From NCBI RefSeq assembly GCF_004135205.1, contig NZ_CP035490.1, positions 2,187,501 through 2,251,500 on the forward strand: a DNA stretch of 64,000 bases, given 5' to 3'. The notes beneath the pieces were generated by a model. That model did no database searches, was not told where the DNA came from, and saw nothing but the letters and a program-made list of their open reading frames with translations. Made by a program: the position numbers and the translations under genes. Each line of letters opens with the position of its first letter. Position 1 is the first letter of the stretch. Below, piece after piece: positions 19,265 through 52,724 of this stretch. This DNA is from Hahella sp. KA22 (GTDB lineage Bacteria > Pseudomonadota > Gammaproteobacteria > Pseudomonadales > Oleiphilaceae).

Positions 19265-19468
19265 ATGGCGGAAGTAAGCAATAACTTCACCAGCATGACT
19301 CTTGACGACGCATCCAACTTCGCTGTGCCGGATTCTCCTGAAGCGATGAACGCCATGCTGAAGGATCTGTATGCCCAGGCTGAGAAGAATGCGATGGAAA
19401 GAGAAATTCTGTCTTTGATTCACAAGCTGATCATGGACGCCATCAAAAAGATCGGTCAGGCAGCTTAA
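19265..19468 (+). CDS. sctF: Needle subunit SctF (YscF)
   Basis: Polymerises to form the extracellular needle. Only 67 aa, shorter than YscF/MxiH (about 83-87). The helix-turn-helix core is kept: a P-x-S-P turn (AVPDSPEAM), then LKDLYAQAEKNAMEREILSL and a helical C-terminus ending IKKIGQAA. GAGGAAA lies just before ATG 19265. Assigned by size, core pattern and its place between the yscE-like and sctG genes. The N-terminal helix appears abbreviated. Hairpins lie both upstream and downstream, consistent with separate, high-level expression. Confidence 0.8.
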   Translation: MAEVSNNFTSMTLDDASNFAVPDSPEAMNAMLKDLYAQAEKNAMEREILSLIHKLIMDAIKKIGQAA

Positions 19469-20395: not shown

Positions 20396-21151
20396 ATGAA
20401 AAAGCGACAGATTTGGCGGTCCGGACTGTGTTTGCTGTTACTGCTGCTGGGCGGTTGCAAGACCGAGCTGTACAGCGGTTTGAGCCAGCAGGAAGGCAAT
20501 GAGATGTATGCGATTCTCCGTTCCACGGGATTTAACGTGGAGATGGAAGTGCTGGGCGCCGGTAAAGACCAGAACGTGCGTCTGAAGCTGCCTGAGCAGC
20601 AGGTGGCCCGCGCCATCAGCGTGTTGCAGAGACAAGGCTATCCAAAGCAGCATTTCGCCACCATGGGGGATATCTTTGCTAAAGACGGCCTGATCTCTTC
20701 GCCCACTGAAGAGAAAGCGCGCTTCATCTACGCCATTTCCCAGGAGTTGTCGCACACATTGTCGAACATCGACGGCGTGTTGGTGGCGAGGGTGCATGTG
20801 GTGATGCAGGAAGGGGATAAATTCGACAAGAATCCCAAGCCCAGCACTGCCTCGGTATTTATCAAATACGTCGAGGATGCGCCAATCGAAACCCTGACGC
20901 CGAAGATTAAGGCGCTGGTCTCCAACAGTATTCTCGGCCTGGATTACGACCAAGTCTCCGTCGCTTTGTTTCCATCGAGCCTGAAGCGGATCACGTCTCC
21001 TGAGGAAGTATCCAATGGCGGCATGATGTATTTGTGGGCGGGTATCGGCGCGTTGCTGGTGCTGCTGCTTGTCGGCGCCTTGTACTACGCGGTGAGAGCG
21101 GGTTGGATTCCTCGTAAAATTCAGACTCCGGCCATCCAGAAACTGGCATGA
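20396..21151 (+). CDS. sctJ: Inner-membrane ring lipoprotein SctJ (YscJ)
   Basis: Forms the inner of the two inner-membrane rings. 251 aa with a lipoprotein signal and lipobox (LLLLLLGGC, acylated Cys near residue 19). Ring-building domains follow with CKTELYSGLSQQEGNEMYAIL and the conserved SHTLSNIDGVLVARVHVVMQ. A C-terminal transmembrane helix sits at ~218-238 (AGIGALLVLLLVGALYYAV). Overlaps the sctK start by 4 bp. Confidence 0.95.
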   Translation: MKKRQIWRSGLCLLLLLLGGCKTELYSGLSQQEGNEMYAILRSTGFNVEMEVLGAGKDQNVRLKLPEQQVARAISVLQRQGYPKQHFATMGDIFAKDGLISSPTEEKARFIYAISQELSHTLSNIDGVLVARVHVVMQEGDKFDKNPKPSTASVFIKYVEDAPIETLTPKIKALVSNSILGLDYDQVSVALFPSSLKRITSPEEVSNGGMMYLWAGIGALLVLLLVGALYYAVRAGWIPRKIQTPAIQKLA

Positions 21152-30415: not shown

Positions 30416-31471
30416 TCAGCGTTGCTGTTTCTGCTGATCGAGACTGTCCACCCACTGCAGTACCGCCGCAACGGCTTCAAACAGGTCAGGAGGCACGTAG
30501 TCGTTGACCTGGGCTCGTTTCCATAGTCCTCGGGCGAGCGGCACGTTTTCCATCATGGGGATGCCTTCTTCTTCGGCGATCTTACGGATGACCTTGGCCA
30601 TTTGATCCGCGCCTTTCACCATGACTTTGGGCACGTCCTCCACGCCTTTTTCATAGTAAATGCCGACGGCCAGGTGGGTGGGGTTGGTGACGATGGCGGA
30701 GCACTTCTTCACCTGCGCCGGAATAGACGTGTTCATCATTTCACGGTGAATCTGTTTGCGCTTGCCCTTGATTTCCGGGCTGCCCTCCATCTGTTTGTAT
30801 TCCCGTTTGACCTCGTCCTTACTCATTTTCTGCTGCTTGATAAACTGTTGTTTCTGGATGAAAAAGTCCGCCGCCGCGAGAGCGATGAAAGTAATGGCGG
30901 AATACAGAATGAGCTGTTTCAGCAATGTCCCGACAAAGTTCGGGATGCACTCCACTTCACAGTAGTGCAATCGGGCGGAGTCATTGAGGTTTTCCTTGAT
31001 CAGCATATAGACCAGATAGGACAACACGCCCACTTTGATCAGCGATTTGACGAACTCGATCAGGTTTTTAACGGAGAAGATTTTCTTGAAGCCTTCCACC
31101 GGATTGAGCTTCTTGAGGTCGGGCTTTAGCGACTCCACGGCGAACAGCGCGCCGACTTGCAGAAAGTTGGCCAGAATAGCGGAGACCATGACCACGCCGA
31201 TGGGCATCAGCGTCAGATAAATCAGCTCATGCAGCACATTGTCGACCACCATGGGCAGCGCTTCCAGAAATGGCCTGTCCATGTATTGCGCGGGCAGTTC
31301 GATCAGGACGCTCAAGTGCGATAGATAGGTGTCGGAGGTGGCCAGCAGCAACAGAAACATCGCGCAGATAGTGGCGGTGGACACCACGTCTTTACTATGG
31401 GCGACCTGGCCTTTTTTACGGGCGTCGCGGAGCTTTTTGGGGGTGGGCTTTTCGGTCTTTTCATCGCTCAT
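30416..31471 (-). CDS. sctU: Type III export switch protein SctU (YscU/FlhB-like)
   Basis: 351-aa export-apparatus protein with four N-terminal membrane helices and a cytoplasmic domain that autocleaves in NPTH (TNPTHLAVGIYYEKG, about residue 260) to switch substrate class from needle/rod to translocators. Starts MSDEKTEKPTPKKLRDARKK, the classic family opening. Last gene of the minus-strand sctN-U operon, 3 bp after sctT. The switching signal comes from SctP, encoded in the same operon. No clear terminator was seen downstream. Confidence 0.96.
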   Translation of the reverse strand: MSDEKTEKPTPKKLRDARKKGQVAHSKDVVSTATICAMFLLLLATSDTYLSHLSVLIELPAQYMDRPFLEALPMVVDNVLHELIYLTLMPIGVVMVSAILANFLQVGALFAVESLKPDLKKLNPVEGFKKIFSVKNLIEFVKSLIKVGVLSYLVYMLIKENLNDSARLHYCEVECIPNFVGTLLKQLILYSAITFIALAAADFFIQKQQFIKQQKMSKDEVKREYKQMEGSPEIKGKRKQIHREMMNTSIPAQVKKCSAIVTNPTHLAVGIYYEKGVEDVPKVMVKGADQMAKVIRKIAEEEGIPMMENVPLARGLWKRAQVNDYVPPDLFEAVAAVLQWVDSLDQQKQQR

Positions 31472-31474
31472 GCG

Positions 31475-32263
31475 TCATGACCCCCATAGCACGTTGAGCT
31501 GCTTGAACAGATCAAAGGTGCGCAGATAACGTTCGTCGAAAATACGCATCAACACGCCCACATAGAAAGTGAGCATCACCATGCACACCAGGCTTTTTAC
31601 CGGCATGGACAAGAAGAAAACATTGAGCTGGGGCGCGAAGCGGCTGACCAGGCCCAGGCCGAACTCCGCCAGAAACATGCAGGCGATCAGCGGGGCGGCG
31701 AACAACACCACGATACTCATGAAGTAATCCAGCTGGGCGAAGAAAAAGCCCGCCGCCGACAGCTCGATCCTTGGGAAAAATGAGAAGATCGGCCAGGCGT
31801 GATAACTGGCGTAAATAGCGCCCATCAGCGTGAGGAAGTTGCCTCCCAGAAAAAACAGGGTGGTGAAGGTCTGTACGAACAGAATGCCTACAGGGGAAGC
31901 CTGAGAACCGGTCAGCGGGTTCATGGCGCTGGCCATGGTGGAGCCGCGTTGGTTGTCGATAAAGAACCCCACCGCCTCCAGCGCCCAGAACGGCAGCGCC
32001 GCCAGCCAGCCAAGACAGAATCCGATGATCACTTCCTTGAAAATAATGAGCGCGTACATAAACGGCTCCATGGTTTCCGGCTTATAGCCTTCGTCCACTA
32101 TTGGAAACAGAAACAGGGATAAACTGAGCACTACGCCGTTGCGGATCAAGGTGCCGCCGAAGAAGCTTTTGCTCAGGAACGGCATGACCGACATGGCCGC
32201 CAGCAGACGCGGCACGGTGAACATGAACAGCGTCAGCGTGTCGCTCATCAGATGGGTCATCAT
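31475..32263 (-). CDS. sctT: Export-gate protein SctT (YscT)
   Basis: 262-aa inner-membrane component of the export gate, FliR-like, with about six to eight hydrophobic helices (LSLFLFPIVDEGY, FLGGNFLTLMGAIYASYHAWPI, LVCMVMLTFYVGVLM). The start overlaps the sctS stop by 4 bp. Confidence 0.94.
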   Translation of the reverse strand: MMTHLMSDTLTLFMFTVPRLLAAMSVMPFLSKSFFGGTLIRNGVVLSLSLFLFPIVDEGYKPETMEPFMYALIIFKEVIIGFCLGWLAALPFWALEAVGFFIDNQRGSTMASAMNPLTGSQASPVGILFVQTFTTLFFLGGNFLTLMGAIYASYHAWPIFSFFPRIELSAAGFFFAQLDYFMSIVVLFAAPLIACMFLAEFGLGLVSRFAPQLNVFFLSMPVKSLVCMVMLTFYVGVLMRIFDERYLRTFDLFKQLNVLWGS

Positions 32264-32532: not shown

Positions 32533-33176
32533 TGGTAACTCAACACCAGGCCATGGGTTAATCGGGTCCAGCCGTCCAGAAGCACGAACAGGAGTAATTT
32601 AAAGGGCAGGGAGATCGTCATCGGCGACACCATCATCATCCCCATGGCCAGCAGGATGTTGGAGACGATCAGGTCGATGGCGATAAAGGGCAGGTACAGC
32701 AGAAAGCCGATTTCAAATGCGGATTTAAGCTCGCTGATGGTGAAAGACGGCACCAGCACCAGCATGCTGTTGGTGTCGAGGCGCGCCGCATATTCTTTCG
32801 GCCACAGGGTTTCCGCGCTTTCCAGAAAGAACCCGCGCTCCTTTTCGGAAGAGTGCTTGGTCAGAAAGTCGGACATGGGATTAATGGCGCTGTTGGCCAG
32901 TTCCTTGAGCGACTCCGACTGACTCATGTCGAAGCCTTTTTCTTTCACGGTGTCCGCAATCTGATAGCCCACCGGCGCCATGATGTAGATCGACAGCACA
33001 ATGGCCAGCCCGTACAGCGCCATGTTGGGTGGAATCTGCTGGATGCCGAGAGCGTTGCGCAGCAAACTGAACACGACGGCGAGCTTGATGAAGGAGGTGG
33101 TCATGATGGCGATGAACGGGATCAGCGACAGCAGGACCAGTGTCCCGATAAGAGGAATCGCCTGTATATCAGTCAT
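32529..33176 (-). CDS. sctR: Export-gate protein SctR (YscR)
   Basis: 215-aa FliP-like export-gate protein. Conserved ATSFIKLAVVFSLLRNALG-like helix (MTTSFIKLAVVFSLLRNALG), IQQIPPNMALYGLAIVLS and the C-terminal ILLAMGMMMVSPMTISLPFK. Overlaps the sctQ stop by 8 bp and sctS by 4 bp. Confidence 0.96.
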   Translation of the reverse strand: MTDIQAIPLIGTLVLLSLIPFIAIMTTSFIKLAVVFSLLRNALGIQQIPPNMALYGLAIVLSIYIMAPVGYQIADTVKEKGFDMSQSESLKELANSAINPMSDFLTKHSSEKERGFFLESAETLWPKEYAARLDTNSMLVLVPSFTISELKSAFEIGFLLYLPFIAIDLIVSNILLAMGMMMVSPMTISLPFKLLLFVLLDGWTRLTHGLVLSYQ

Positions 33177-34167
33177 GCCCGCCGACCTCGCTGTCGCCGC
33201 CGGTCAACCGTACTACGCGCGCCCCCAGACGCCCATCGATTTCCACCAGCTCGCAGCGGGCCAGGGTTTGTCCGTTAACCTTCATCGCTACTGGCGCTTC
33301 CAGGCTCAGGCCGAGATCAAAGGCGGCGCCTTCAGTCATTTGCGAAAGCTCGGCCAAGGTCAGGTTGAGAGAGCCGAGATGAAACTCCAGCTTCAATTCC
33401 AGATTGCCCAGTTCGGATGGGGCGTCGAGAGGTTCGGAAGTGTATTGTGTTTCTGAAGTCATGGGCGTCACCAGTACTAATTTGTGATCATCTAAGCGGG
33501 CGCGGCAGGCGCCGTATCCGGGCAGGCGCAGCGTCACCAGATCCGCTGACGCGCCTGGCGGCAGCATCAACACGTCTCCGGACTCCAGGCCTTTGAAGTC
33601 GTTGAGAGACATCCGGCGCTCCGCCAGCAGCAGTTGCGCCGACGCCAATGGCGTGATCGGCGCTGGCGCTGTTTCGGCGGGCAGGGTGGCGAGCAATGCA
33701 GCGATGCGTTCGGCAAGGTGCGGTGGCGGCGTCAACAGCCCCAGCCCAGTATTGCCGGGGGCGCTAATTTGCATGCCGATACGGACGCCGGCCAGAACCA
33801 TGGTGCTGTCCTGGCTGATTTCATCCAGTTCCAGCTCAGTCTGTAATACAGAGGAAAGCGCCTGCAGAGGACCATTCAGTTGCGCCGCCAGTAAGGCTGA
33901 GAGCAGGGGCTCCGGATAGACGGAGGCGTCCTGATTCTCTCCCAGCAGCGCGCTGACGGCGCGGATGTCCAAATGCAGATGGCCGCGACGCCCCTCGGCG
34001 TAAAAGGCGATGCTGGCGTAGGTCTCCAGCATCTCCAGTCGGCGCAGATTGACCTGGGCGGTATGCTCAGGCAATTGCGCCGCAAACGGGCGGCGGCGGG
34101 CGCAGATCAGGTTATCCAGATCCACCTGCGTTCGCCCCAGCCGGGGTAGCTTCAGCGGCTTAATCAT
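33169..34167 (-). CDS. sctQ: C-ring / sorting-platform protein SctQ (YscQ)
   Basis: 332-aa cytoplasmic protein; the C-terminal SpoA/FliN domain is clear at ~255-330 (LKLEFHLGSLNLTLAELSQM, then GAAFDLGLSLEAPVAMKVNG and LARCELVEIDGRLGARV). In many systems an internal start produces a separate C-terminal fragment; no obviously strong internal start was recognised here. Overlaps sctP by 4 bp. Confidence 0.9.
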   Translation of the reverse strand: MIKPLKLPRLGRTQVDLDNLICARRRPFAAQLPEHTAQVNLRRLEMLETYASIAFYAEGRRGHLHLDIRAVSALLGENQDASVYPEPLLSALLAAQLNGPLQALSSVLQTELELDEISQDSTMVLAGVRIGMQISAPGNTGLGLLTPPPHLAERIAALLATLPAETAPAPITPLASAQLLLAERRMSLNDFKGLESGDVLMLPPGASADLVTLRLPGYGACRARLDDHKLVLVTPMTSETQYTSEPLDAPSELGNLELKLEFHLGSLNLTLAELSQMTEGAAFDLGLSLEAPVAMKVNGQTLARCELVEIDGRLGARVVRLTGGDSEVGGHD

Positions 34168-37100
34168 TGCTGCTGGCCTTTGGCGCGGCGCACCGGCGCC
34201 TTACCGTATGGGCTGGCTTTTTTGCTTTCTTGAATCCTGACCTCGAAACGTTCATTAGGCAGCTTGCTCCTCAGGGATGTGCTCATCTCTCCCTTTAGTG
34301 ACACCAGGAAGGCCTGAGTTTCAGGATTAGGAGTATTAAAGCTCAGCTGAATGTCGCCATGTTTGCGCATGATGGCGATTTCCGTGCCTTTCAGCGGTCC
34401 GGAACTCAGCATCAGACGCAGCTCTTCCGGCTGCCCCGAGCCCGGTTTGCTGATCATCACGCGGCTCACGATCTGATCGACGATCTTCTGCATTTCCGCC
34501 ACTTTCTCCTGCGTGGAGACCTTGCTGGTCTCCGTTGCGCTGGCGTTGGCGACGGGGTCGCGGGACGGGTTCTGCTGTGCTGGCTGCACCTGGAAGCTTT
34601 CCACCTGACCTTCGCGACGCTCCTGTGGTTGTTCTGTTTTCTCTTTGTTTTTCTGCGGCGCTGAGGGCTTCTCGCGGCGCTCCTGATGGTCGGAGGAGGC
34701 GGAGCCCTTGCTCGTCACTTTGTTGGCGAGATGGCTGCCTGGACGCTGGAACTCGCCGGCGTGCAGCTCAGGTTTGCCTGTTTCCACTTTGCTGTGAACG
34801 CCGCCTTCCTGTCTTTTCGGCTCTGCTTTGCTCTCCGCCTGAAGCACACTGGAGTCTATGGGGGAGGCCTTGGAGTGGGGCGTCGGTTGAGTCTTGCTGG
34901 CGTGCTCGGTGGTAAGTCCGGGCTGATCCGCTTTCTGATCAACCTGATGAGGACCGGACGCAGCCGCTTTATGCGACTTATCGCCCTCTGAGCCCGGGAC
35001 TCCCGTTTTTATGACGGTTGACTGGCGCTCGGATGAATCCGGGTCGCCATGTTGAGCCCCTGACTTCGCGGCGGGCTCAAGCCCTTGGCCTGTTTTATCC
35101 ACCTTCTTCAGCGTTGACGCAGGATGCTCAGGTGGACCGTTTACAGGCTGGCGCGAAGCGCTTTTTTCTTGCGGCAGCCCGGATTTGACATGGGATTGAG
35201 GTTTGTTATGCCCATCCGGGTTGGCCTGTGATGGCGCTTGTTGTGGACGGATATGATCGACCTTGGCCTGTGTTTCCGCTTTAGATTGAAGATCGCCTTT
35301 TGACGACGAATCAGTCTTGCTCTCTGGCCTGGTTTGCGCGGGATCGTGGTTAGGCTGTGTCGGCTCTGTTTTGGCTTGGCTGTCCGTTTTAGGCTGCGTG
35401 TTTTCGGGCTTGGTTTGAGCTGGCTCTGACTTGTTGGCTACCTCAGATTTGGGCTGAGTATCCGCTTTGCTATCCGGCTTCGGTTGAGCGGGATCGCGAT
35501 TAGGCTGTGCGGGCTCAGTCTTGGCTTGGCCGTCTGTTTTAGACGGCGTGTTTTCAGGTTTGGCTTGATCAGGCGCTGATTTGTTTGTCACCTCAGGTTT
35601 AGGCTGGGTGTCTGCTTTACTTTCCGGCTTCGGCTGAACGGGGTCGCGGTTAGCCTGCGTCGGCTCAGTTTTAGCCTGGGCGTCTGTTTTAGGCGGCGTG
35701 TTCTCAGGTTTGGTTTGAGCTGGTTCTGACTTGTTGGTTACCTCAGGTTTAGTCTGAGTGTCTGCTTTGTTTTCCGGCTTCGGTTGAGCGGGATCGCGGT
35801 TAGGCTGAGTTGGCTCAGTTTTAGCCTGAACGTCTGTTTTAGGCGGCGTGTTCTCAGGCTTGGTTTGAGCAGACTCTGATTTGTTCGTTACCTCAGGTTT
35901 AGGCTGGATATCCGCCTTGTTTTCCGGCTTTGGTTGAGAGGGATCGCGGTTAGGCTGAGTCGGCTCAGTTTTAGCCTGGACCTCCGTTTTAGGCGGCGTG
36001 TTTTCAGGCTTGGTTTGAGCTGGTTCTGACTTGTTGGTTACCTCGGTTTTAGGCTGAGTGTCTGCTTTGTTTTCTGGCTTCGGTTGAGCGGGGTCGCGGT
36101 TTGGCGGCGTCGGCTCAGTTTTAGCCTGGCCGTCCGTTTTGGGTGGTGTGTTCTCAGGTTTTGTCTGAGCTGGTTCGGACTTGTTAGTCACCTCAGGTTT
36201 GGGCTGAATGTCTGTTTTGTTTTCCGGCTTTGGTTGAGCTGGATCACGGTTTGGCTGAGTGGGCTCAGTTTTAGCTTGGCCGTCCGTTTTAGGAGGCGTG
36301 TTCTCGGGCTTGGTTTGAGCTGGCTCTGACTTGTTGGTTACCTCTGATTTGGGCTGAGTATCTGCTTTGTTATCCGGCTTCGATTGAGCCGAATCACGGG
36401 TAGACTGAGTTGGCTCAGTTTTAGCCTGACCGTCCGTTTTAGGCGGCGTGTTCTCGGGCTTGGTTTGAGCTGGCTCTGACTTGTTGGCTACCTCAGGTTT
36501 AGTCTGAGTGTCTGCTTTGTTTTCCGGCTTCGGTTGAGCGGGATCGCGGTTAGGCTGAGTTGGCTCAGTTTTAGCCTGAACGTCTGTTTTAGGCGGCGTG
36601 TTCTCAGGCTTGGTTTGAGCAGACTCTGATTTGTTCGTTACCTCAGGTTTAGGCTGGATATCCGCCTTGTTTTCCGGCTTCGGTTGAGCGGTATCGCGGT
36701 TGGGCTGAGTTGGCTCAGCTGTAGCCTGGGCGTCTGTTTTAGACGGAGTGGTCTCAGGCTTGGTCTGAGCAGGTTCCGACTTGTTCGTCACCTCAGGCTT
36801 GGGCTGAGTATCTACTTTGCTTTCCGGTTTCGGCTGAGCGGGGTCGCGGTTAGCCTGCGTTGGCTCAGTTTTAGCGTGGGCGTCTGTTTTAGACGGAGTA
36901 GTCTCAGGCTTTGGCTGTGCTGGTTCCGACTTGTTCGTCACCTCAGGCTTGGGCTGAGTCTCTGCTTTGTTTTCTGGCTTCGGTTGAGCAGGGTCGTGGT
37001 TGGGCTGCGTTGGCTCAGTTTTAGCTTGGGCGTCTGCTTTGTTTTCTGGCTTCGGTTGAGTGGGATCACGGTTTGGCTGTGTCGGCTCAGTTTTAGCATG

Positions 37101-38222
37101 GGCGTCTGTTTTAGACGGAGTTGTTTCAGGCTTTGGCTGTGCTGGTTCTGACTTGTTCGTCACCTCAGGCTTGGGCTGAGTATCCGCTTTGCTATCCGGT
37201 TTCGGTTGGGCGGTATCGCGACTAGCCTGAGTAGGCTCGGTCTTGGCCTGACCGTCCGTTTTATGCGGCGTGTTCTCGGGCTTTGTCTGAGCAGGCTCTG
37301 ATTTGTTGGTTACCTCAGACTTAGGCTGGTTGTCCGCTTTGTTTTCCCTCCTGGTTGGTGATGGCTCCTTGGCGATTGGGTTTTGTTCGGCCTTGGCGTC
37401 CAGTTTGGATTGTGCGGACTCTGACTTAACCGGCTCTTCCAGCCTGGGTTGTGCTTCCGACTTCGGCGGTAGTTTGTCTGAGGCGACTTTGGGGTCATTG
37501 ATGGTCTCAAGTTTGGCTTGGACTTGGTCGCCTTCAAGCTGAGCGGGTTTGCGCCCGGATGAGTCGGGCTTGGCTTCATGCAGCGTGCTTTTGGGGGCCC
37601 GAGGTGATTCCGATATGGTTTTATCCGGGTTATTTGGTAAGGGTGAAGATTGAGCGTCAGGGTTCGACTTGGCGTACTCCGGGACGGTGGTTTCCGACTT
37701 GAGCTGACCGAACTGTTCATCGTTTTTGGGTGGGGAAAGCTCCGGTTTATCTCCAGGCAGCTTGTTCTGTAACGCGCCGAGCTGGCTGAGTTCAGCGCCA
37801 TTGTTGTCTTGGGAGGCGAAAAGGCTGAGCTCCCTTGGCGTTTGCTCTTGCGGCAATGATTGCTTGGGCTGCGCCAGCTCGGGTTTATCCAGAAGTCCGC
37901 CTTTTTCTCCGGTCGGGGATTTCTGGGCGAAAGTCTGCGTCAAAGACGGGATGGAGGTCTTGGGTTCCATCTGACCGGGCTTGGAGGGCTGCGCCAGGTT
38001 TTCCGTCGCTTTGAACGCATTTTTCACCATTTCAATCATGGCGTTGCGAACTTTATCCGGCACCGGTTTTTCCTGTGACTGCTCTTCCGTTTGCCGGAAC
38101 TTATCCGGGTTGACGGACTTGGTCTCCATTAATTTGCTGAATTGTTGCAGGGAGCTTTCCGCGACCGCTTCCGACTCTTTTTCCCTGTCTGAGGAACCTG
38201 ACGTGCGATTGGATATTCTCAT
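34164..38222 (-). CDS. sctP: Needle-length ruler SctP (YscP) with thirteen 50-residue repeats
   Basis: 1,352-aa secreted ruler and substrate-specificity switch; Yersinia YscP is about 515 aa. Residues 1-294 are polar and disordered-looking. Residues 295-968 are tandem repeats: thirteen copies of exactly 50 residues plus one 24-residue partial copy after copy 2, 674 residues in all. A unit reads KADTQPKPEVTNKSEPAQTK, then PENTPPKTDGQAKTEPTQPN and RDPAQPKPEN. Residues ~970-1235 are low-complexity. The C-terminal ~110 residues form the T3S4 switch domain (ELRLMLSSGPLKGTEIAIMR, then GDIQLSFNTPNPETQAFLV) that acts on SctU. Position between sctO and sctQ is standard. The repeats are rich in Pro, Lys and Glu. 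Confidence 0.92.
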   Translation of the reverse strand: MRISNRTSGSSDREKESEAVAESSLQQFSKLMETKSVNPDKFRQTEEQSQEKPVPDKVRNAMIEMVKNAFKATENLAQPSKPGQMEPKTSIPSLTQTFAQKSPTGEKGGLLDKPELAQPKQSLPQEQTPRELSLFASQDNNGAELSQLGALQNKLPGDKPELSPPKNDEQFGQLKSETTVPEYAKSNPDAQSSPLPNNPDKTISESPRAPKSTLHEAKPDSSGRKPAQLEGDQVQAKLETINDPKVASDKLPPKSEAQPRLEEPVKSESAQSKLDAKAEQNPIAKEPSPTRRENKADNQPKSEVTNKSEPAQTKPENTPHKTDGQAKTEPTQASRDTAQPKPDSKADTQPKPEVTNKSEPAQPKPETTPSKTDAHAKTEPTQPNRDPTQPKPENKADAQAKTEPTQPNHDPAQPKPENKAETQPKPEVTNKSEPAQPKPETTPSKTDAHAKTEPTQANRDPAQPKPESKVDTQPKPEVTNKSEPAQTKPETTPSKTDAQATAEPTQPNRDTAQPKPENKADIQPKPEVTNKSESAQTKPENTPPKTDVQAKTEPTQPNRDPAQPKPENKADTQTKPEVANKSEPAQTKPENTPPKTDGQAKTEPTQSTRDSAQSKPDNKADTQPKSEVTNKSEPAQTKPENTPPKTDGQAKTEPTQPNRDPAQPKPENKTDIQPKPEVTNKSEPAQTKPENTPPKTDGQAKTEPTPPNRDPAQPKPENKADTQPKTEVTNKSEPAQTKPENTPPKTEVQAKTEPTQPNRDPSQPKPENKADIQPKPEVTNKSESAQTKPENTPPKTDVQAKTEPTQPNRDPAQPKPENKADTQTKPEVTNKSEPAQTKPENTPPKTDAQAKTEPTQANRDPVQPKPESKADTQPKPEVTNKSAPDQAKPENTPSKTDGQAKTEPAQPNRDPAQPKPDSKADTQPKSEVANKSEPAQTKPENTQPKTDSQAKTEPTQPNHDPAQTRPESKTDSSSKGDLQSKAETQAKVDHIRPQQAPSQANPDGHNKPQSHVKSGLPQEKSASRQPVNGPPEHPASTLKKVDKTGQGLEPAAKSGAQHGDPDSSERQSTVIKTGVPGSEGDKSHKAAASGPHQVDQKADQPGLTTEHASKTQPTPHSKASPIDSSVLQAESKAEPKRQEGGVHSKVETGKPELHAGEFQRPGSHLANKVTSKGSASSDHQERREKPSAPQKNKEKTEQPQERREGQVESFQVQPAQQNPSRDPVANASATETSKVSTQEKVAEMQKIVDQIVSRVMISKPGSGQPEELRLMLSSGPLKGTEIAIMRKHGDIQLSFNTPNPETQAFLVSLKGEMSTSLRSKLPNERFEVRIQESKKASPYGKAPVRRAKGQQQ
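35319..37340 (-). repeat. Tandem 150-bp minisatellite encoding the SctP ruler repeats
   Basis: 2,022 bp: thirteen 150-bp units and one 72-bp partial unit, all in frame within sctP. Units differ by a few substitutions each. Stretches 35739-35930 and 36489-36680 are identical over about 190 bp at an offset of exactly 750 bp (five units), pointing to recent unequal exchange or conversion. Confidence 0.93.
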
Positions 38223-38243: not shown

Positions 38244-38717
38244 TTAGTTTTGGGGGCGTGAAAAATTGGTTTCGCTGGCTTCCTCAAGCTCGAGGTCTTC
38301 GAGTCGCTGGGCTTCCGCGTTGGCTTCGGCAGTCACCTGCTCAATAAGCATCTGACACTTTTCTACGGCTTTGCCGGCTTCCGCCAGGGCGTGCTCCGCC
38401 TGACGCAACGCCGCTTCCGCTTGTTTTTGCTCTTGTTTTGCGTTTTCTACCTGCTCCGCCAGAGAGACTTCCTTCAAGCGCAGCATGCCGATCTGATGTT
38501 TGACTTTGTCGATTTCCTTGAGGCCGACCTCCGACCCCATAATGCCGTCGTAGAGACGATGCTCTTCCTGTACTCGCCATATCTCAAACTGCTGCAGGTC
38601 GCGTGTGGCTTCCTCTACCTGCGCCTGCTTTTGCGCCAGCATTTGACGCTTTTTTAGCGCCTCCGCCTGTGCGTTGCGCTCGCGCAGCTTTTTAATGTCG
38701 GCCAGTGCTGACAGCAT
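38244..38717 (-). CDS. sctO: ATPase-complex stalk protein SctO (YscO)
   Basis: 157-aa, highly charged, almost entirely coiled-coil protein (KKLRERNAQAEALKKRQMLA, then QVENAKQEQKQAEAALRQAE), the FliJ-like stalk that sits in the SctN hexamer. Lies 3 bp after sctN and 21 bp before sctP, as in other Ysc clusters. Confidence 0.9.
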   Translation of the reverse strand: MLSALADIKKLRERNAQAEALKKRQMLAQKQAQVEEATRDLQQFEIWRVQEEHRLYDGIMGSEVGLKEIDKVKHQIGMLRLKEVSLAEQVENAKQEQKQAEAALRQAEHALAEAGKAVEKCQMLIEQVTAEANAEAQRLEDLELEEASETNFSRPQN

Positions 38718-38720
38718 GGT

Positions 38721-40040
38721 TTACACCGTTTGCGCCAGGGCGTTCAGAGTGGTTTGGAAATCGCATTTTTCATCTGTCGCCTGTTTCAGAAAGCCGCGGA
38801 TGCGGTCGATCTTGGCGATGGCCTCATCCGCCAGCGGATCGCTGCCGCGCTGGTATTCGCCGATTTTCACCAGCAGCTCCACATCCACATACTTGGCCAT
38901 CAGCTCGCGCATCTTGCCCGCCGCCTGACGGTGCTCCAGGCTGGTGATGGCGGTCATTACCCGGCTGGTGCTGGCGAGCACGTCAATGGCGGGATAATGG
39001 TTGGCTGAGGCCAGTTTGCGCGAGAGCACAATGTGGCCGTCGAGAATGGAGCGCACCTCGTCGGCGATGGGTTCGGACATATCATCCCCTTCCACCAGAA
39101 CTGTATAGAGCGCGGTAATGGAGCCCTTGTCGTTGAAGCCCACTCGTTCCAGCAGCTTGGGCAGGGTGGCGAACACGGAAGGCGGAAAACCGCGTCGGGT
39201 GGGCGGTTCGCCCGCCGCCAGACCGATTTCCCGTTGCGCCCGGGCGAAACGCGTTACTGAATCCATCAGCAACAACACTCTCTGGCCCTGGTCGCGAAAA
39301 TATTCGGCGATGGTAGTGGCTACGTAAGCGGCCTTGGCGCGCTCCATGGAAGGGCGGTCCGACGTGGAGATCACCAACACTGAACGGGCCAGACCCTCCG
39401 GCCCCAGGTTGTGTTCAATAAATTCCCGCACCTCGCGGCCCCGTTCCCCGATCAGGGCGATAACGATAACGTCCACGTCCGCCCCCATGACCAGCATGGA
39501 CAGCAACGTACTCTTACCGCCGCCAGCGGCGGCGAATACGCCCATCCGCTGGCCTTCGCCGCAGGTGAGCAAGCCGTCCAGGGCGCGCACGCCGAGGCTG
39601 AGTGGTTCGCTGATCATACGGCGCATCATGGGGGAGGGCGCATCGGCGTAGACCGGATAATGTTGCAGGTCGGATGGAAAATCCGCGTTTTTACCGTCCA
39701 TCGGATTGCCCATGCCGTCCAGTACGCGTCCCAGCAGGTGGGGGCCGACGGCGATTTGATGGGATTGTCCTGTGGTGATCACTTCTGTAGCGGTGGAGAT
39801 GCCCAGCATGTCTCCCATCGGCGTCAACAGCGCTTCTTTTTCCTGAAACCCCACCACTTCGGCGAGCAATCTCGGGGCGCCTTCGGACTCCAGATAGCAA
39901 AGCTCGCCAATTTGCGCGCCGGGAACGATCGCCCGGATGATGGTGCCGACCACGTTGGTCACCCGGCCGCGCAGGCCGACCGGTTGCACCTCGGCGATGG
40001 CCGAGCGCAGGTCTGATAACACATGGCTCAACTGGCTCAC
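38721..40040 (-). CDS. sctN: Type III secretion ATPase SctN (YscN)
   Basis: 439-aa F1-beta-like hexameric ATPase that unfolds substrates and releases chaperones. Walker [15 protein letters not shown] at ~166-179, Walker [21 protein letters not shown], and the family signature [20 protein letters not shown]. First gene of the sctN-U operon, divergent from sctW across about 105 bp. Confidence 0.97.
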
Positions 40041-40085: not shown

Positions 40086-40145
40086 TTCTTATGGGTGTTA
40101 CCAACAGGGAGAAAGTTGCATGTTCAATTGCCGGAGATCGCAAAC

Positions 40146-41276
40146 TTGAGTGAGCAAATCGTCAACCGAACCAGCGCTCCTGTCCTGCAGAGCGGGTCGA
40201 TGTCCACGAATGAAGCGGTTACCCGACAGGGCAAGCTGCACGGGGAAAATGTGCAGGTGAAGCAGAGCGCGTCCTCTTTATTGGAAGACGCCAAAGAGGA
40301 AGTGACCCTTCTGTTCAAGGAGCGAGCGGAGAAAACGTTGGCGCGGCGGGAAATGTCCACCGGCAAGAAAGAGAACACTCAGCAGATTCTGATCGAGAAA
40401 ATTCGGGAGATGATGGATCAGGTTCCCGACTTGCTGAAGAACGTCAAAATGAAAGTGCTCATTGAGCGCATGGCCAGTAATTTTCCTTCCACCCCACAGC
40501 AATTGATGCGGCGGCTGGAGGAGTTCTCCAAAGACCCGACATTGCAGTTCGTGGCCTTGCAGGTGTTGGAGAAAGAAGCCAAGTCCGGCGGCGCGGATAA
40601 AGCGGAGCAGTTGAAGCTGATTCAAAGCGCCGCTACTGAACTGATGAACACTAAAGGCGAGTCGGTGCGAGCGGGACTGAACGTCTCGCTCACTGCGTCT
40701 GAATTCGCCGACCGCCTGAAAACGGACGTCCAGATGCTGCGGGACGCCTATCGCGATGCGGTGTTGAACTACGGCGGCATTACCCAGACCTATCGCACCA
40801 TTGTCGAGCGTCATAAAGGGCGTCCCTTTGAAACCGTGCGCAAGTTCCTGATGAAAGCCCTGGGCGCCGATTACAACGCGCAGGGGCCTTCCATTGAACC
40901 GTCGCGCCTCAAGGCCATCATGGATGACATGTATGCGCTCAAGCTGTTGGGCGGCGTGCATGAGCAATGCTGCGACATCATGGGAACCATGCGCGATATC
41001 TACGAGCAGCGCGATTGTAAAGACGGCCAGGACCTGATGGGAAAAGTGCTGGACATCAAGGACATGGACTGGGTGCAGCCGTCCCAGATCGCCTCCATCC
41101 CGATGGAAATGAATGTGCTGGGCATTGAAAACCAGATCTACCTGTTACGGGAAGTGGACACGGTGTTTCGCGAAATTCCCGAAAAAACCTACAACGACCC
41201 CGCCGACCGGGAACGCCTGCTGGGCGTTTCCAGAGAAGCCCTTGAGCAGCTGTTTATCAAGGAGCAGGAAGAATGA
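40146..41276 (+). CDS. sctW: Gatekeeper SctW (YopN-TyeA fusion type)
   Basis: 376-aa regulator that blocks effector export until host contact. N-terminal secretion/chaperone-binding region, central YopN-like helices (LPEIANL before the start, then LEDAKEEVTLLFKERAEKTL and QQLMRRLEEFSKDPTLQFVA). The C-terminal TyeA-like domain contains LLGGVHEQCCDIMGTMRDIY, WVQPSQIASIP and IYLLREVDTVFREIPEKTY. YopN and TyeA are one polypeptide here. Start uncertain: TTG 40146 has GGAG 9 bp upstream; a GTG at 40095 would add 17 residues. First gene of the sctW-V operon. Confidence 0.88.
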   Translation: MSEQIVNRTSAPVLQSGSMSTNEAVTRQGKLHGENVQVKQSASSLLEDAKEEVTLLFKERAEKTLARREMSTGKKENTQQILIEKIREMMDQVPDLLKNVKMKVLIERMASNFPSTPQQLMRRLEEFSKDPTLQFVALQVLEKEAKSGGADKAEQLKLIQSAATELMNTKGESVRAGLNVSLTASEFADRLKTDVQMLRDAYRDAVLNYGGITQTYRTIVERHKGRPFETVRKFLMKALGADYNAQGPSIEPSRLKAIMDDMYALKLLGGVHEQCCDIMGTMRDIYEQRDCKDGQDLMGKVLDIKDMDWVQPSQIASIPMEMNVLGIENQIYLLREVDTVFREIPEKTYNDPADRERLLGVSREALEQLFIKEQEE

Positions 41277-42371: not shown

Positions 42372-42728
42372 ATGAGCGAGCCACTCTCCCTCAGTCCCGC
42401 CAACCGTGAATGGTTGCTGGCGCTGGCGTTCGTGTATCTCCAGCAGAATCATCACAAAAAGGCGCTGACCCTGTTGCAGGCCACCGCCAAACTTTGTCCT
42501 GAGGACGCCTATGTGACGCGCGGACTCGCTTTCGCCTGCCTGAAGGCGGCGCGTTACAAGGATGCGCTGACTCTGAGCGACCGTAGCCTGCGGGAGCTGG
42601 GCGTGAAACAGGAGACCGCGCCGTTTCTATTGATACGCAGTCACGCGCTGTGGGCGCTGGAGCGTCCGGAGGAAGCGCGTAAAAGCCTGAAGAAATATCA
42701 TCAACTAACAAGGAACTCTGTCGTATGA
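42372..42728 (+). CDS. sctY: SctX chaperone SctY (YscY)
   Basis: 118-aa TPR-type chaperone of SctX. Helical repeats: [20 protein letters not shown], then [20 protein letters not shown] and [20 protein letters not shown]. The stop overlaps the sctV start (ATGA). Confidence 0.85.
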
Positions 42729-44797
42729 GTAGAGGAGCTTCTGTCCTGAGCGCGCTCAGCCAGCGCAACGACGTGGTGCTGGCGATTTTCCTGGTGGGCA
42801 TCATCTTTATGATGATCTTGCCCATGCCTACCATGCTGGTGGATGTGATGATCGCCCTCAACATGGGGGTATCGGTGATACTTCTGATGCTGGCGCTGTA
42901 TATCAAATCGCCGCTGGATTTCTCCGTGTTTCCTTCCATGTTGCTGATCACGACCATGTTCCGGCTGGCGCTGTCGATCACCACCACGCGCTTGATTCTG
43001 CTGCAGGCGGATGCGGGGCAGATCGTTTACACCTTCGGTAACTTCGTCGTTGGCGGTAACCTGGTGGTGGGCGGCGTTATCTTCCTTATCTTGACCATCG
43101 TGCAGTTCCTGGTGATCACCAAGGGCTCCGAGCGGGTGGCGGAAGTCAGTGCGCGTTTCTCTCTGGACTCCATGCCTGGTAAACAAATGAGTATCGACGG
43201 CGACATGCGCGCCGGAGTTATCGATATGGACGAGGCGCGCATCAGACGCGCTAAAGTGGAGAAGGAGAGCCAGCTATACGGTTCCATGGATGGCGCCATG
43301 AAATTCGTTAAAGGCGACGCGATTGCGGGCTTGATCATCACCGCGGTTAACATTCTCGGCGGTATCCTGGTTGGGGTGACGCAAAATGGCCTGAGCGCCG
43401 GCGACGCCGCCGCCATCTATTCGGTGTTGACCATCGGCGATGGTCTGGTGGCGCAGATTCCTGCTCTGTTTATCTCGATCACCGCGGGCTTTATCGTCAC
43501 CCGCGTGTCCACGGACGAGTCGGAAAACCTGGGGCGCGATATCGGCGGCCAGATCGGAGCGCAGCCGAAGGCGTTATTTATCGGCGGCGCCTTGCTGCTG
43601 GGCTTCGCCATGATCCCTGGTTTCCCAACCATGACGTTCCTGGTGCTGGCGGGGCTGATCAGCTCCGTCGGCTTCATCATGAGTCGCAAAGCCAAACATT
43701 CCGAGACGGATGATGACGATATTCCCGCTATGGCGGCGGCGGGGCAGACTCGAGCTCAGAGCAAGACGCCAGAGAAGGATGACTTTTCTCCGACGGTGCC
43801 CCTGTTGCTGGACGTGGCGGCGTCCTGCCAGCAAATGCTGAAACCCTCTGAACTGAACGCTGAGCTATACAGAGTGAGGCGCGCCCTGTATCTGGATCTC
43901 GGCGTTCCGTTTCCCGGCATTCACCTGCGCTTCAACGAAAGCATGAAAGATGGCGAGTACACTATTCTGATGCACGAAGTGCCCGTGGCGCAGGGACGTT
44001 TGCCGGCGGATAAGGTCGTGGTGCTGCAGGACCAGGAGCAGTTGGACATTCTTGGCATCCCTCATCAACAGGGCGAGCTGGCGATGTCCGCCAACCCTTA
44101 CTGGGTGGAAAAGACCCATGCTCCCGCCATGGAAAACGCGGGTATTGAATACCTGGATGCGCCGCGACTGTTGATTTACCACTTGTCTTTTATTCTGAAG
44201 CGCTACGCCAGCGAATTTATCGGCTTGCAGGAGTGCCGCTATCTGTTGGATCAGATGGAAGGGCAATATGGCGATCTGGTGAAAGAGGTGCAGCGTGTGG
44301 TGCCGATTCAGCGCATTGCGGAGATCCTGCAGCGACTGGTGTCGGAAGATATCTCCATCCGTAATCTGCGCGCCATCATGGAGGCGCTGGTGGAATGGGG
44401 CCAAAAGGAAAAAGACACGGTGTTGCTGACGGAGTACGTACGCAAGAGTCTGAGCCGCTACATCAGCTATAAATTCTGCAACGGTCAGAATGTCTTGCCC
44501 GCCTATATGCTGGATCAGGATCTGGAAGAATCCATTCGCGGCGGCATCAGGCAGACCTCTTCCGGCGCTTATCTGGCCCTCGACCCGGACACCACGCAGA
44601 ATTTCATCAATGAACTGCATCGGGAAGTCGGGGACCTGGACGCATTGCCGCATAAACCGGTGTTGCTGGTGTCCATGGACATTCGACGTTATGTCAGAAA
44701 GATGATCGAGCGCGATTTCTTCGAGCTGTGCGTGCTGTCCTATCAAGAACTCACCCAGGACATCACGGTGCAACCGATCAGCCGTATTTGTCTGTAA
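42725..44797 (+). CDS. sctV: Major export-gate protein SctV (YscV/LcrD)
   Basis: 690-aa nonameric export-gate protein. Eight N-terminal membrane helices with the FHIPEP-family signature ([20 protein letters not shown], then [18 protein letters not shown] and [20 protein letters not shown]). The large cytoplasmic domain from ~residue 350 binds chaperone-substrate complexes. Last gene of the sctW-V operon; a strong terminator follows. Confidence 0.96.
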
Positions 44798-48441: not shown

Positions 48442-49026
48442 CTAAGATTTGCGTCGCGCTCTTCCCGCCAGTCCCAAAAGCGCTGCGCCGAATAAGGCCA
48501 GAGTGGCTGGCTCGGGAACCTTTTGGATGCTGGCTATATTGAACTTCACTGTAGCAGCGCCATCAAGCGTCAAACTGCCTGAGTCGAATATGTCGATGGG
48601 TAACTGGAATAAGAGCGGAGATAGAGTTGCGCCGAAGTTAAGTTCAATGTCAGCAACATCAAAATAGAAATAAGGAATATTATCCGCAGGCACTTCATCA
48701 ATGAAACTAAAGCTATTTTTCGTGATATTGGCCTTCATTTCAAAAGCAGGGGTTGTACTCTCTCCTGACTGACCAAAAGCATAATCGCCTACCTTTAGAT
48801 TCCAGGCGCTAATCACAATTTTGCGATCTTCAGGCGGTCCTTTGAGATCATAAGTGAAGCTGCCAAGCATAGAGGTCCCAATTTTGGGAAAATCCCTTTC
48901 CGGAAAAGAAGGGTCAAATACATTACTGACGTCTTCAAGGCTTCCTAAAAACTGATAGGTAATGGGAGTGGCGCGAACCGCGGAGGAAAGCGTTAGGACG
49001 GTTAAGAAAAGCAAAACTTTCTTCAT
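48442..49026 (-). CDS. PEP-CTERM sorting-domain protein
   Basis: 194-aa exported protein: N-terminal signal peptide (VLLFLTVLTLSSAVRA, cleaved near 19-20) and a textbook C-terminal sorting tail, VPEPATLALFGAALLGLAGR, ending ARRKS. The mature part is beta-rich with no recognised domain (ITYQFLGSLEDVSNVFDP). Such proteins are processed by exosortase (EpsH/XrtA) and usually contribute to biofilm matrix. No exosortase gene lies in this window. AAGGAATTCTC precedes ATG 49026. Confidence 0.9.
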   Translation of the reverse strand: MKKVLLFLTVLTLSSAVRATPITYQFLGSLEDVSNVFDPSFPERDFPKIGTSMLGSFTYDLKGPPEDRKIVISAWNLKVGDYAFGQSGESTTPAFEMKANITKNSFSFIDEVPADNIPYFYFDVADIELNFGATLSPLLFQLPIDIFDSGSLTLDGAATVKFNIASIQKVPEPATLALFGAALLGLAGRARRKS

Positions 49027-51234: not shown

Positions 51235-52263
51235 TTATAGTTGTTGCACGTAACGGATCGCGTCGCGTTCGTTGGACGTGGTCCAGCCGTCTTCCAATAT
51301 CGCCGTTAGCAAGTTGCGCAGCGGCGTATGCGCTTTCAGGCTGCTTTTGATGATGGGCGTCGATCGGCGCACCCGGTTGACGTACAGCAACGCCACGTCG
51401 TCCGCATCCGAGTTGTACGCCCAGTCCAGCTCTTTGAAGACACTGTAAACTTTGTCCATTTCGTAGCTGCACTTTTCCACCAGGTCGCGGGCGATGGCTT
51501 CCTCGTCGGTGTTGAACATCTGTGTATGTTTATCCAGAAAGGTTTTCACGAACGGATCGTTGGAGGCGGCGACTTCAATGTAGGCTTCGTCTGCAACAAT
51601 GGAGCCCAGAACACCTCCGACTACGGCGCCAATGGCGACGCCCACCGGGCCCGCCCACAATCCCGCCACCGCGCCTCCCGCTGCGCCGCCGGCGAAGCCG
51701 CCGCCAAGATTGGCTGCTTCTCTGCCTGTCGCCCGGGTTTTGTCCTCGGCGGAGGCGATGTTGTAGATGGCGATCCCGGCGCTTAACAACCAGAGGGCGC
51801 GACCGGCTTTACCCAGGCGAATGGCTTTCGCCGAAACCTTGGGGTTCGCTCTGCCGGAACTTTCCACAATCTGCAGAAAGACGTGATCCTGGTCTGCTTT
51901 GCTCAGCTGCGAGAAGGATTTGCTGAACAGACGCTTGGCGTACTTGTCGCACAGCACATCCAAATCCAGACCTTTCGCTTTGAGGGCGCGGGCTTTGGCG
52001 CGTCCGATGTCGCTGGATTTGGTTCTGGCCCACTCCATGATTTCATTACGCATCTGGTTGGCGGCTTGCGCCGCTTCGCTGGGGCTCATCTGGCGACTGT
52101 TGACGAGATCTTTCAACGATTCCGCGTAGGCTTTGGTTTTCTCCATGTACATCCGGCGGACGTTGCTGTCCTGGATAAAGCGTTGCCCGAAATTGACGGC
52201 CTGGATTTCAAACTGCCTGATGGCGTCATGCGCGCTGTTATTGTTGGATTGAGTGTCCGGCAT
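51235..52263 (-). CDS. Unrecognised 342-aa protein with glycine-zipper membrane segment
   Basis: No family recognised. N-terminal half helical and charged. The centre holds a hydrophobic helix (ALWLLSAGIAIYNIA) and then a glycine-zipper pair (LGGGFAGGAAGGAVAGLWAG, then PVGVAIGAVVGGVLGSIVAD), as in pore-forming or membrane-inserting toxins and in some secretion effectors. C-terminal domain of ~120 residues (KTFLDKHTQMFNTDEEAIAR). A good AAGGAACC precedes ATG 52263. Probably co-transcribed with the 138-aa gene upstream; the two are separated by an octamer repeat array. Confidence 0.6.
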   Translation of the reverse strand: MPDTQSNNNSAHDAIRQFEIQAVNFGQRFIQDSNVRRMYMEKTKAYAESLKDLVNSRQMSPSEAAQAANQMRNEIMEWARTKSSDIGRAKARALKAKGLDLDVLCDKYAKRLFSKSFSQLSKADQDHVFLQIVESSGRANPKVSAKAIRLGKAGRALWLLSAGIAIYNIASAEDKTRATGREAANLGGGFAGGAAGGAVAGLWAGPVGVAIGAVVGGVLGSIVADEAYIEVAASNDPFVKTFLDKHTQMFNTDEEAIARDLVEKCSYEMDKVYSVFKELDWAYNSDADDVALLYVNRVRRSTPIIKSSLKAHTPLRNLLTAILEDGWTTSNERDAIRYVQQL

Positions 52264-52275
52264 ACTAGGTTCCTT

Positions 52276-52315
52276 TTAGTCGCTTAGTCGCTTAGTCGCT
52301 TAGTCGCTTAGTCGC
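52276..52315. repeat. Five tandem copies of TTAGTCGC
   Basis: A perfect 40-bp simple-sequence array lying between the stop of the 138-aa gene (whose TAA falls within the last copy on the minus strand) and the ribosome site of the 342-aa gene. Each copy supplies a potential TAA on the minus strand in one frame. Confidence 0.9.
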
Positions 52316-52724
52316 GTCGAGTAATGATTATCTGTGTGCGTCGGAAAAATTTGTCGGAGCGCTGAACTCCGGGAACCGCTTCGGCTTTCCACAAAAAGCG
52401 CGGCTCCAGTAACCACTCCGCCCGGATCTTGAGACCCGGCCAGAAGATGAAATCGATGTGATTGGCGCCTGCGTCAATGAATTGAAATACACCCCCAGTG
52501 TATTCGGCGGAGAGCGTGACTTCTTCTTTTACGTGACCGCTGCTGTCGAGGTGTTGTATATGCAGCGTTTCTTCGTAGGGGCAATCTTCGCTGAAGAAGG
52601 CCAGATATTCCTGGTCTCGGGTGAAATGCGCTTCGTAGACGAGACCTTCAGGCGTCGGGAAAGGAAAATTCGCCTTGTCTGCAAGGGTGAGGGCGTTGGT
52701 TTCTTCTTTTATCGGGGCAGTCAT
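52308..52724 (-). CDS. Unrecognised 138-aa protein
   Basis: No family recognised. Soluble, mixed beta pattern (GLVYEAHFTRDQEYLAFFSE, then GGVFQFIDAGANHIDFIFWP), ending with basic FFRRTQIIITRRD. No signal peptide. The ribosome site is weak. It precedes the glycine-zipper protein gene by 45 bp containing the octamer array, so the two might be functionally paired (for example toxin and immunity or chaperone); this is inference from layout. Confidence 0.55.
   Translation of the reverse strand: MTAPIKEETNALTLADKANFPFPTPEGLVYEAHFTRDQEYLAFFSEDCPYEETLHIQHLDSSGHVKEEVTLSAEYTGGVFQFIDAGANHIDFIFWPGLKIRAEWLLEPRFLWKAEAVPGVQRSDKFFRRTQIIITRRD

What the first reader, a model, noticed from the sequence alone, without database searches (positions are those of the whole stretch)
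35319..37340. SctP ruler expanded by thirteen exact 50-residue repeats
The needle-length ruler is 1,352 aa, more than twice Yersinia YscP, because 674 residues (295-968) are 150-bp tandem units kept strictly in phase. In Yersinia, adding or removing YscP residues changes needle length linearly. A ruler this long predicts an unusually long injectisome needle, and unit loss or gain would let the population tune needle length in 50-residue steps.
Basis: partly seen in the sequence, partly recalled or inferred. Interest (0 to 1): 0.85.

Follow-up and report, generated by a model that had tools for sequence, protein, structure and literature searches.

The report
Giant repeat-built injectisome needle ruler
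A marine bacterium carries an unusually long version of the protein that is thought to set the length of its protein-injection needle, lengthened by a run of similar 50-residue units whose number differs between related species, so needle length may evolve by copying blocks of the ruler.

Summary
The gene at 34164-38222 (-) encodes 1,352 aa. Residues 295-968 hold 13 units of 50 residues plus one 24-residue half unit. The units are not exact (mean DNA identity 82%, range 73-100%). The half unit is internal, so the 50-residue register breaks once, although the reading frame holds.

The protein is SctP. It lies in sctN-O-P-Q order, and its predicted C-terminal domain matches the PscP switch domain.

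The host is a Hahella species. In four congeners the orthologue is 1,248, 1,147, 1,060 and 927 aa, the last without the array. The same genome has a second injectisome whose SctP is only 205 aa.

The units are under stronger amino-acid constraint than the other linkers. Nearest full units lie in the same genome in three genomes, and one 192-bp tract recurs exactly 750 bp away. The array therefore looks like selected, recombining spacer, not free length-tuning slippage. Rulers with repeats are known in Yersinia, so this is an extreme variant of a known kind. The predicted long needle is untested.

The parts
34164..38222 (-). sctP, 1,352 aa ruler/switch protein of injectisome 1
   Evidence: ORF; TIGR02514 E 6.6e-9, 36 of 76.5 bits; PF09483 23.8 bits at cut-off 23.8
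37953..38222 (-). conserved N-terminal 90 residues (expected to hold the export signal; inferred)
   Evidence: 88-98% aa identity over six pairs of four Hahella genomes
37341..37952 (-). non-repeat linker 1, residues 91-294
   Evidence: 67-87% aa identity over six pairs, dN/dS 0.25-0.37; residues 254-279 resemble a decayed B half unit (38%)
35319..37340 (-). repeat array, residues 295-968: 13 units of 50 plus one internal half unit of 24
   Evidence: no aromatic residue, 19% Pro, 105 basic and 108 acidic residues of 674
37041..37340 (-). units 1-2
36969..37040 (-). lone 72-bp half unit (A type), residues 395-418
   Evidence: TRF period 72 row 36961-37112
35319..36968 (-). units 3-13, eleven contiguous 150-bp units
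36489..36680 (-). 192-bp tract identical to the one 750 bp downstream in the gene (covers unit 5)
35739..35930 (-). second copy of the 192-bp tract (covers unit 10)
34647..35318 (-). non-repeat linker 2, residues 969-1192
   Evidence: 59-87% aa identity over six pairs, dN/dS 0.30-0.33
34230..34514 (-). folded C-terminal switch (T3S4) domain, residues about 1237-1331
   Evidence: AF2 helix-strand-strand-strand-helix-strand; best PDB match PscP SS domain 5cuk, E 1.3e-5
38244..38717 (-). sctO
   Evidence: PF07321 E 6.1e-43
38721..40040 (-). sctN ATPase
   Evidence: NF005391 784 bits, over cut-off 657
33169..34167 (-). sctQ
   Evidence: TIGR02551 E 6e-27, 95.3 bits, just below cut-off 100.8; PF01052
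32529..33176 (-). sctR
   Evidence: TIGR01102 over cut-off
31475..32263 (-). sctT
   Evidence: TIGR01401 over cut-off
30416..31471 (-). sctU, expected partner of the switch domain; contains NPTH
   Evidence: TIGR01404 over cut-off; NPTH read in the translation
40095..41276 (+). sctW gatekeeper
   Evidence: TIGR02568 over cut-off
42725..44797 (+). sctV export gate
   Evidence: TIGR01399 over cut-off
19265..19468 (+). candidate needle subunit sctF, 67 aa (by position and size only)
   Evidence: between sctD (17784-18923) and sctJ (20396-21151); no NCBIfam hit; gene-order expectation recalled

Best explanation
This is the SctP ruler and specificity-switch protein of a Ysc-type injectisome in Hahella. 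While the needle grows, SctP is passed through the export channel. Its C-terminal domain (about residues 1237-1331) meets SctU and switches export from needle subunits to later substrates once the chain is stretched across base and needle. The 674-residue array is a proline-rich, charge-balanced, non-aromatic spacer with no predicted fold, and it adds length to the stretched chain. The array came from in-frame tandem copying of an old ~25-residue element (two related half units of 24 and 26 residues). It is kept similar within each genome by recombination between units and kept at the protein level by purifying selection. Shown here: identity of the gene, anatomy, genome-specific arrays, constraint, patch-like identity between distant units. 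Inferred from Yersinia and FliK work: that it is secreted, that it measures, and that a longer chain gives a longer needle (roughly 200 nm if the recalled Yersinia slope of 0.19 nm per residue held so far outside its tested range).
For: Gene order N-O-P-Q and most core T3SS genes in the window. Predicted C-terminal fold matches the PscP SS domain 5cuk (E 1.3e-5, TM 0.79 by target, rmsd 2.2), the only one of 1098 matches at E <= 0.001; the FliK C-terminal domain 2rrl is second at 1.4e-3. Length series 1352/1248/1147/1060/927 aa in five of seven Hahella genomes; conserved ends in four of these, and the C-terminal 171 residues of CCB-MM4 are 66% identical. Unit pN/pS 0.158 (bootstrap 0.104-0.226) in the window against 0.33-0.44 in the two linkers, six pairs each (ratios from the values). 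Nearest full unit in the same genome for 13 of 13, 12 of 12 and 10 of 10 units. Half units A and B align better than all 2,000 shuffles. Yersinia YscP is reported to vary in repeat number, with needle length linear in its size (passages of PMC3469391).
Against: No needle has been measured. The curated TIGR02514 cut-off is not reached (36 of 76.5 bits), though 0 of 390 genomes of the order reach it either. No PDB sequence matched the C-terminal profile (0 at E <= 10). The second system of the same genome has a 205-aa SctP, for which the recalled Yersinia line gives about zero length, so that line cannot hold for every Hahella ruler. YscP is described as keeping helical structure while measuring (PMC5073101 section 18); this array is not predicted to be helical (one sequence, low-confidence model), so nm per residue may differ. 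The needle subunit of system 1 was not recognised by its family model. One study could not place the H. chejuensis T3SS in a known family (passage of PMC3734048), another counts two Ysc systems (passage of PMC3459982).
Confidence: 0.66

Rival explanations
1. Graduated ruler: the units are not inert spacer but repeated contact or pause modules for needle subunits or the channel wall, so that what is counted is the number of modules as much as the chain length.
For: Units keep their amino acids more strictly than the linkers; 21 of 50 columns invariant across 13 units, and the unit consensus is nearly shared with G001 and G002. FliK and EscP are reported to bind hook and needle subunits (PMC6972891 passages; PMC5073101 passages).
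Against: CCB-MM4 has a 927-aa SctP without such units. HN01, closest to the window by synonymous divergence, has a rearranged 101-residue unit. No binding evidence.
Confidence: 0.17
2. The protein switches export but does not set length linearly at this size; needles are of ordinary or loosely controlled length and the array has another use, such as slowing its own secretion.
For: 1,352 aa is about 2.5 times the longest YscP named in the passages read (538 aa). The 205-aa second SctP does not fit the Yersinia line. Inner-rod timing is an alternative length mechanism proposed for Salmonella (PMC4831731 passages).
Against: The long Hahella SctPs keep the same place, both ends and an extended middle (four genomes; CCB-MM4).
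Confidence: 0.2
3. The array is a neutral by-product of slippage and unequal exchange in a tolerant linker, without function in its length or sequence.
For: Genomes differ in number and arrangement; a conversion-like 192-bp tract; linkers tolerate change.
Against: Unit pN/pS is 2-3 times lower than in the linkers, bootstrap upper bound 0.226 in the window, 0.303 in G001 and 0.221 in G002 against linker values of 0.33-0.44; reading frame and charge balance are kept.
Confidence: 0.1
4. Assembly artefact: the unit number is wrong.
For: Only one assembly of this genome was examined.
Against: Single-contig genome; most units differ at many sites, so collapse is unlikely; open, in-frame arrays recur in three other assemblies.
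Confidence: 0.03

Closest known systems
YscP of Yersinia enterocolitica
   Same: SctP ruler with in-frame repeats (14, 25 and 46 aa) whose number varies between strains; needle length reported linear in protein size (passages of PMC3469391)
   Different: 452-538 aa and a few repeats there; here 1,352 aa with 13 units and a half unit making up half of the protein, proline-rich; variation seen here only between genomes held as separate species
PscP of Pseudomonas aeruginosa
   Same: Predicted C-terminal fold (5cuk)
   Different: No sequence match in the PDB search; the matched structure is the switch domain alone; full PscP length not looked up
FliK flagellar hook-length ruler
   Same: Ruler region plus C-terminal switch domain; fold hit 2rrl at 1.4e-3
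   Different: PF02120 does not hit this protein; Salmonella FliK is 405 aa (PMC6972891 passage)
SctP of injectisome 2 in the same genome and genus
   Same: Same family, same N-O-P-Q slot; PF09483 37.9 bits, TIGR02514 55.1 bits
   Different: 205 aa, no array; it also hits PF02120 (33.1 bits, cut-off 29.8)
   Same: In-frame repeats before the switch domain: 99 bp x 4.9 and 57 bp x 2.9
   Different: 442 aa and 285-298 aa; unit sequences differ from those of Hahella by eye

Membership tests
SctP/YscP ruler-switch proteins (T3S4) | gene between sctO and sctQ in an injectisome operon | tested here: met
SctP/YscP ruler-switch proteins (T3S4) | curated sequence model TIGR02514 at its cut-off | tested here: not met
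   36 of 76.5 bits, E 6.6e-9; 0 of 390 genomes of the order reach the cut-off
SctP/YscP ruler-switch proteins (T3S4) | Pfam HpaP domain PF09483 | tested here: inconclusive
   23.8 bits at a cut-off of 23.8; 24.1, 24.6, 24.7 and 19.5 bits in four relatives
SctP/YscP ruler-switch proteins (T3S4) | C-terminal switch-domain fold | tested here: met
   5cuk E 1.3e-5, TM 0.79 by target on a model of mean pLDDT 70, 79-92 per ten-residue block in residues 61-150 of the piece
SctP/YscP ruler-switch proteins (T3S4) | autocleaving SctU partner with NPTH | tested here: met
   NPTH present in window SctU; cleavage not tested
SctP/YscP ruler-switch proteins (T3S4) | extended, poorly folded ruler region | tested here: met
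   composition; AF2 pLDDT 51.9 without secondary structure on 200 array residues, single sequence, so weak
SctP/YscP ruler-switch proteins (T3S4) | secreted, and its size sets needle length | not testable with these tools
   needs secretion assay and electron microscopy
FliK | PF02120 Flg_hook match | tested here: not met
   three PF02120 places in the genome, none in this gene (one is the second SctP); none
Repeat-tuned (contingency) locus | near-identical repeats with unit number varying between isolates of one species | tested here: inconclusive
   units 82% alike on average; no second isolate of the same species was compared

The most novel reading that the evidence does not exclude
Hahella carries a natural series of ruler proteins (927 to 1,352 aa), four of five built from conserved 50-residue modules or their derivatives that act as graduations and not only as length, giving very long, species-specific needles beside a second injectisome with a 205-aa ruler in the same cell; rulers in several lineages evolve by the same in-frame copying.
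Probability: 0.2. Interest if true: 0.78.

Novelty: new variant of a known kind. Interest (0 to 1): 0.56.

Why it matters
To my knowledge (recalled) whether needle length follows ruler length has been tested mainly by engineering one ruler over a narrow range. Hahella offers an unengineered series in one genus, from 927 to 1,352 aa in one system, plus a 205-aa ruler in a second system of the same genome, so electron microscopy alone could test the law well beyond its known range. The contrast between conserved residues and diverged synonymous sites also asks whether ruler spacer is truly inert. Repeats in the same place in other rulers suggest a common route by which injectisomes change reach.

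Tried and rejected
'Exact repeats': rejected. Selection for codon scrambling between units to stabilise the array: not supported; same-codon use between units (0.66) is higher than in shuffles (0.44). A recent block duplication of five units: not supported; at an offset of 750 bp identity is 92-100% only around the 192-bp tract, 72-86% elsewhere in the contiguous part, and lower where the internal half unit shifts the register, which fits a conversion-like patch. Antisense ORFs over the array (for example 36684-37151 +) are taken as by-products of the periodic sequence (not tested further). RNA families and tRNAs: none reported in the window. PDB search by sequence profile: nothing. Strain-level variation: not testable; the genome-contig scan gave two loci, HN01 and CCB-MM4. 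The system-2 SctP slot of G004 was not resolved. In one search, 28 of 35 loci gave no ORF matching an SctP query, so its length range rests on 7, five of them Hahella. In one search the longest frames covering the match were printed, not always the SctP frame. SctS, SctI and SctK were not confirmed by a family hit. Literature: looked for a repeat-built or very long SctP; two searches returned no paper; of the papers listed in the others I opened PMC3469391, PMC5073101 and PMC3459982 only, so a case in an unopened paper (for example PMC10896167) or outside this open-licence library is not excluded. Papers opened for passages: PMC3469391, PMC4831731, PMC3542141, PMC6972891, PMC5073101 (also its section 18), PMC3734048, PMC3459982, PMC9030710. 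Journet 2003 and Wagner 2009 were seen only as cited; the 0.19 nm slope is recalled.
Full report
What is there. The ORF 34164-38222 (-) encodes 1,352 aa. Tandem Repeats Finder reports a 150-bp period over 35334-37040 (85% matches, 0% indels) and a 72-bp period at 36961-37112. Parsing the protein gives alternating half units B (26 aa) and A (24 aa): 13 B-A units of 50 residues, plus one extra A at residues 395-418 between units 2 and 3. The half units themselves are related (alignment score reached by 0 of 2,000 shuffles), so the unit descends from an older ~25-residue repeat.

What is not as described. The units are not exact. Over the 78 pairs of 13 units DNA identity is 73-100%, mean 82%. 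One pair, units 5 and 10, is identical, inside an exact 192-bp repeat 750 bp apart; a scan of all offsets found only two other exact direct repeats of 40 bp or more in the gene, both 43 bp. At that offset identity falls to 72-86% away from the tract, in the part of the array that is in register, so it looks like a conversion patch, not a five-unit block copy. The 50-residue register breaks at the internal half unit.

What gene it is. Upstream are sctN and sctO, downstream sctQ, sctR, sctT and sctU. SctC, D, J and L lie at 15.8-22.4 kb, SctW and SctX at 40.1-42.4 kb, SctY and SctV at 42.4-44.8 kb, and translocon-like proteins at 46.4-48.3 kb. SctS, I, K and the needle subunit SctF were not confirmed by a family hit (SctS not looked for). 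The C-terminus of SctP matches TIGR02514 (E 6.6e-9, below its curated cut-off) and PF09483 at its cut-off. An AF2 model of the last 171 residues, built from three Hahella sequences (mean pLDDT 70, core blocks 79-92), has as its only PDB match at E <= 0.001 the PscP SS domain (5cuk, E 1.3e-5), with FliK's C-terminal domain next at 1.4e-3. That settles the domain well enough; function remains inferred.

Relatives. The genome is a 6.96-Mb single contig. A search of 58 genomes of relatives with the C-terminal 378 residues gave matches in 6, the window's genome included. Named relatives are Hahella sp. HN01 and Hahella sp. CCB-MM4. G002 has the length I recall for H. chejuensis KCTC 2396 (recalled, not checked; one search found no record). 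SctP lengths: window 1352, G001 1248, G002 1147, HN01 1060, CCB-MM4 927. Arrays: G001 12 units; G002 10 full units and a shortened stretch; HN01 a rearranged array with a 303-bp period; CCB-MM4 none. Two of the seven genus genomes, G003 and G006, gave no match. HN01 is closest to the window by synonymous divergence (SctN dS 0.24 against 0.41-0.44; no tree of species was built), yet its half units are less like the window's than those of G001 and G002, so arrays turn over faster than their flanks. Some authors name HN01 as H. chejuensis (passage of PMC9030710).

Second ruler. The same genome has a second Ysc-type system whose SctP is 205 aa. Orthologues in G001, HN01, G002 and G006 are 208, 205, 222 and 237 aa; the slot in CCB-MM4 was not resolved. 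That H. chejuensis has two Ysc systems of unknown function is in print (passage of PMC3459982); another study could not place its T3SS in a family (passage of PMC3734048).

How unusual is the length. In 390 genomes of the order, 24 had TIGR02514 matches at E <= 1e-7, 26 matches in all; open frames ran from 235 to 493 aa apart from this gene (1,359 stop to stop), and the window's genome was the only Hahella with a listed match. In 369 genomes of the class at the looser E <= 0.001, 29 had a match, with frames up to 662 aa apart from this gene. Some of these frames may be flagellar FliK. In 35 T3SS loci examined downstream of SctN, 7 gave an SctP-like ORF, 205-442 aa, five of them from Hahella system 2.

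Evolution of the array. Between units pN/pS is 0.158 (bootstrap 0.104-0.226) in the window, 0.183 (0.107-0.303) in G001 and 0.123 (0.062-0.221) in G002. The non-repeat linkers, compared between species in six pairs each, give 0.33-0.44; the N-terminal 90 residues give 0.10-0.30 and the C-terminal 160 give 0.08-0.16 (from the values). The units are thus more constrained in amino acids than the linkers, about as much as the ends. This compares copies within a genome with orthologues between genomes, so it is a guide, not a formal test. Every full unit has its nearest relative in its own genome (13 of 13, 12 of 12, 10 of 10); at half-unit level with HN01 included it is 81 of 83. In a FastTree of units the window's 13 group with 0.998 support, while G001 and G002 units mix. 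Mean inter-unit dS (0.70-0.95) exceeds dS between the window and three relatives in four neighbouring genes (0.15-0.45), so the array is old, with homogenisation that is slow or patchy.

Physical character. The 674 residues have no F, Y or W, 3.1% hydrophobic residues, 19% proline and 105 basic against 108 acidic residues. AF2 on 200 array residues gives pLDDT 51.9 and no secondary structure (one sequence, so weak). An extended chain is therefore likely.

Length prediction. With 58 nm for Y. enterocolitica E40 (passage of PMC3542141), 515 aa for YscP (given for two other strains; for E40 recalled) and a slope of 0.19 nm per residue (recalled), 1,352 aa would give about 217 nm. The same line gives about zero for the 205-aa ruler, so it should not be trusted far from Yersinia. 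The ceiling for a fully stretched chain at 0.37 nm per residue (PMC6972891 passage) is 500 nm.

Known context. YscP of Y. enterocolitica varies in the number of 14-, 25- and 46-aa repeats (452-538 aa) and its size is reported to set needle length linearly (passages of PMC3469391). So repeat-built rulers are known; the scale, the constraint and the two-ruler genome are what is added. Two other lineages found here also have in-frame repeats before the switch domain: G255 (99 bp x 4.9) and G1081 (57 bp x 2.9). Of 27 TIGR02514 loci tested for repeats, these 2 had a perfect 20-residue self-match, the other 25 at most 11 of 20 in the frames printed.

Verdict. A real and striking case, an extreme variant of a known kind. 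The long-needle claim is plausible and testable, not shown. The 50-residue tuning claim is weakened by unit divergence and constraint, but strain-level data are missing.

Noticed in passing
window 52276-52315: Five perfect copies of the octamer TTAGTCGC between two minus-strand ORFs (51235-52263 and 52308-52724), reaching a few bases into the second: a possible slippage-prone site.
   Followed up: no
L135 1815-3143 (G255), array 2063-2544: Another gammaproteobacterial SctP of 442 aa has 4.9 copies of a 33-residue unit at 95% match; two family relatives (338 and 398 aa) show no such repeat.
   Followed up: partly
L167 1212-1376 (G1081): SctP-like ORF with 2.9 copies of a 19-residue unit, followed by an ORF whose end resembles SctQ (by eye) and which holds its own Pro/Ala-rich repeats.
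   Followed up: partly
L049 15614-16231: Second injectisome of the same genome with a 205-aa SctP; a transposase-like ORF lies near it (9262-10296, by eye).
   Followed up: partly
window 48442-49026: PEP-CTERM (exosortase-sorted) protein gene beside the translocon genes.
   Followed up: no
window 19265-19468: 67-aa ORF in the expected sctF place without an NCBIfam hit; the needle-family search of the genome rang only outside the window, near system 2, so the needle subunit of system 1 may be divergent.
   Followed up: partly
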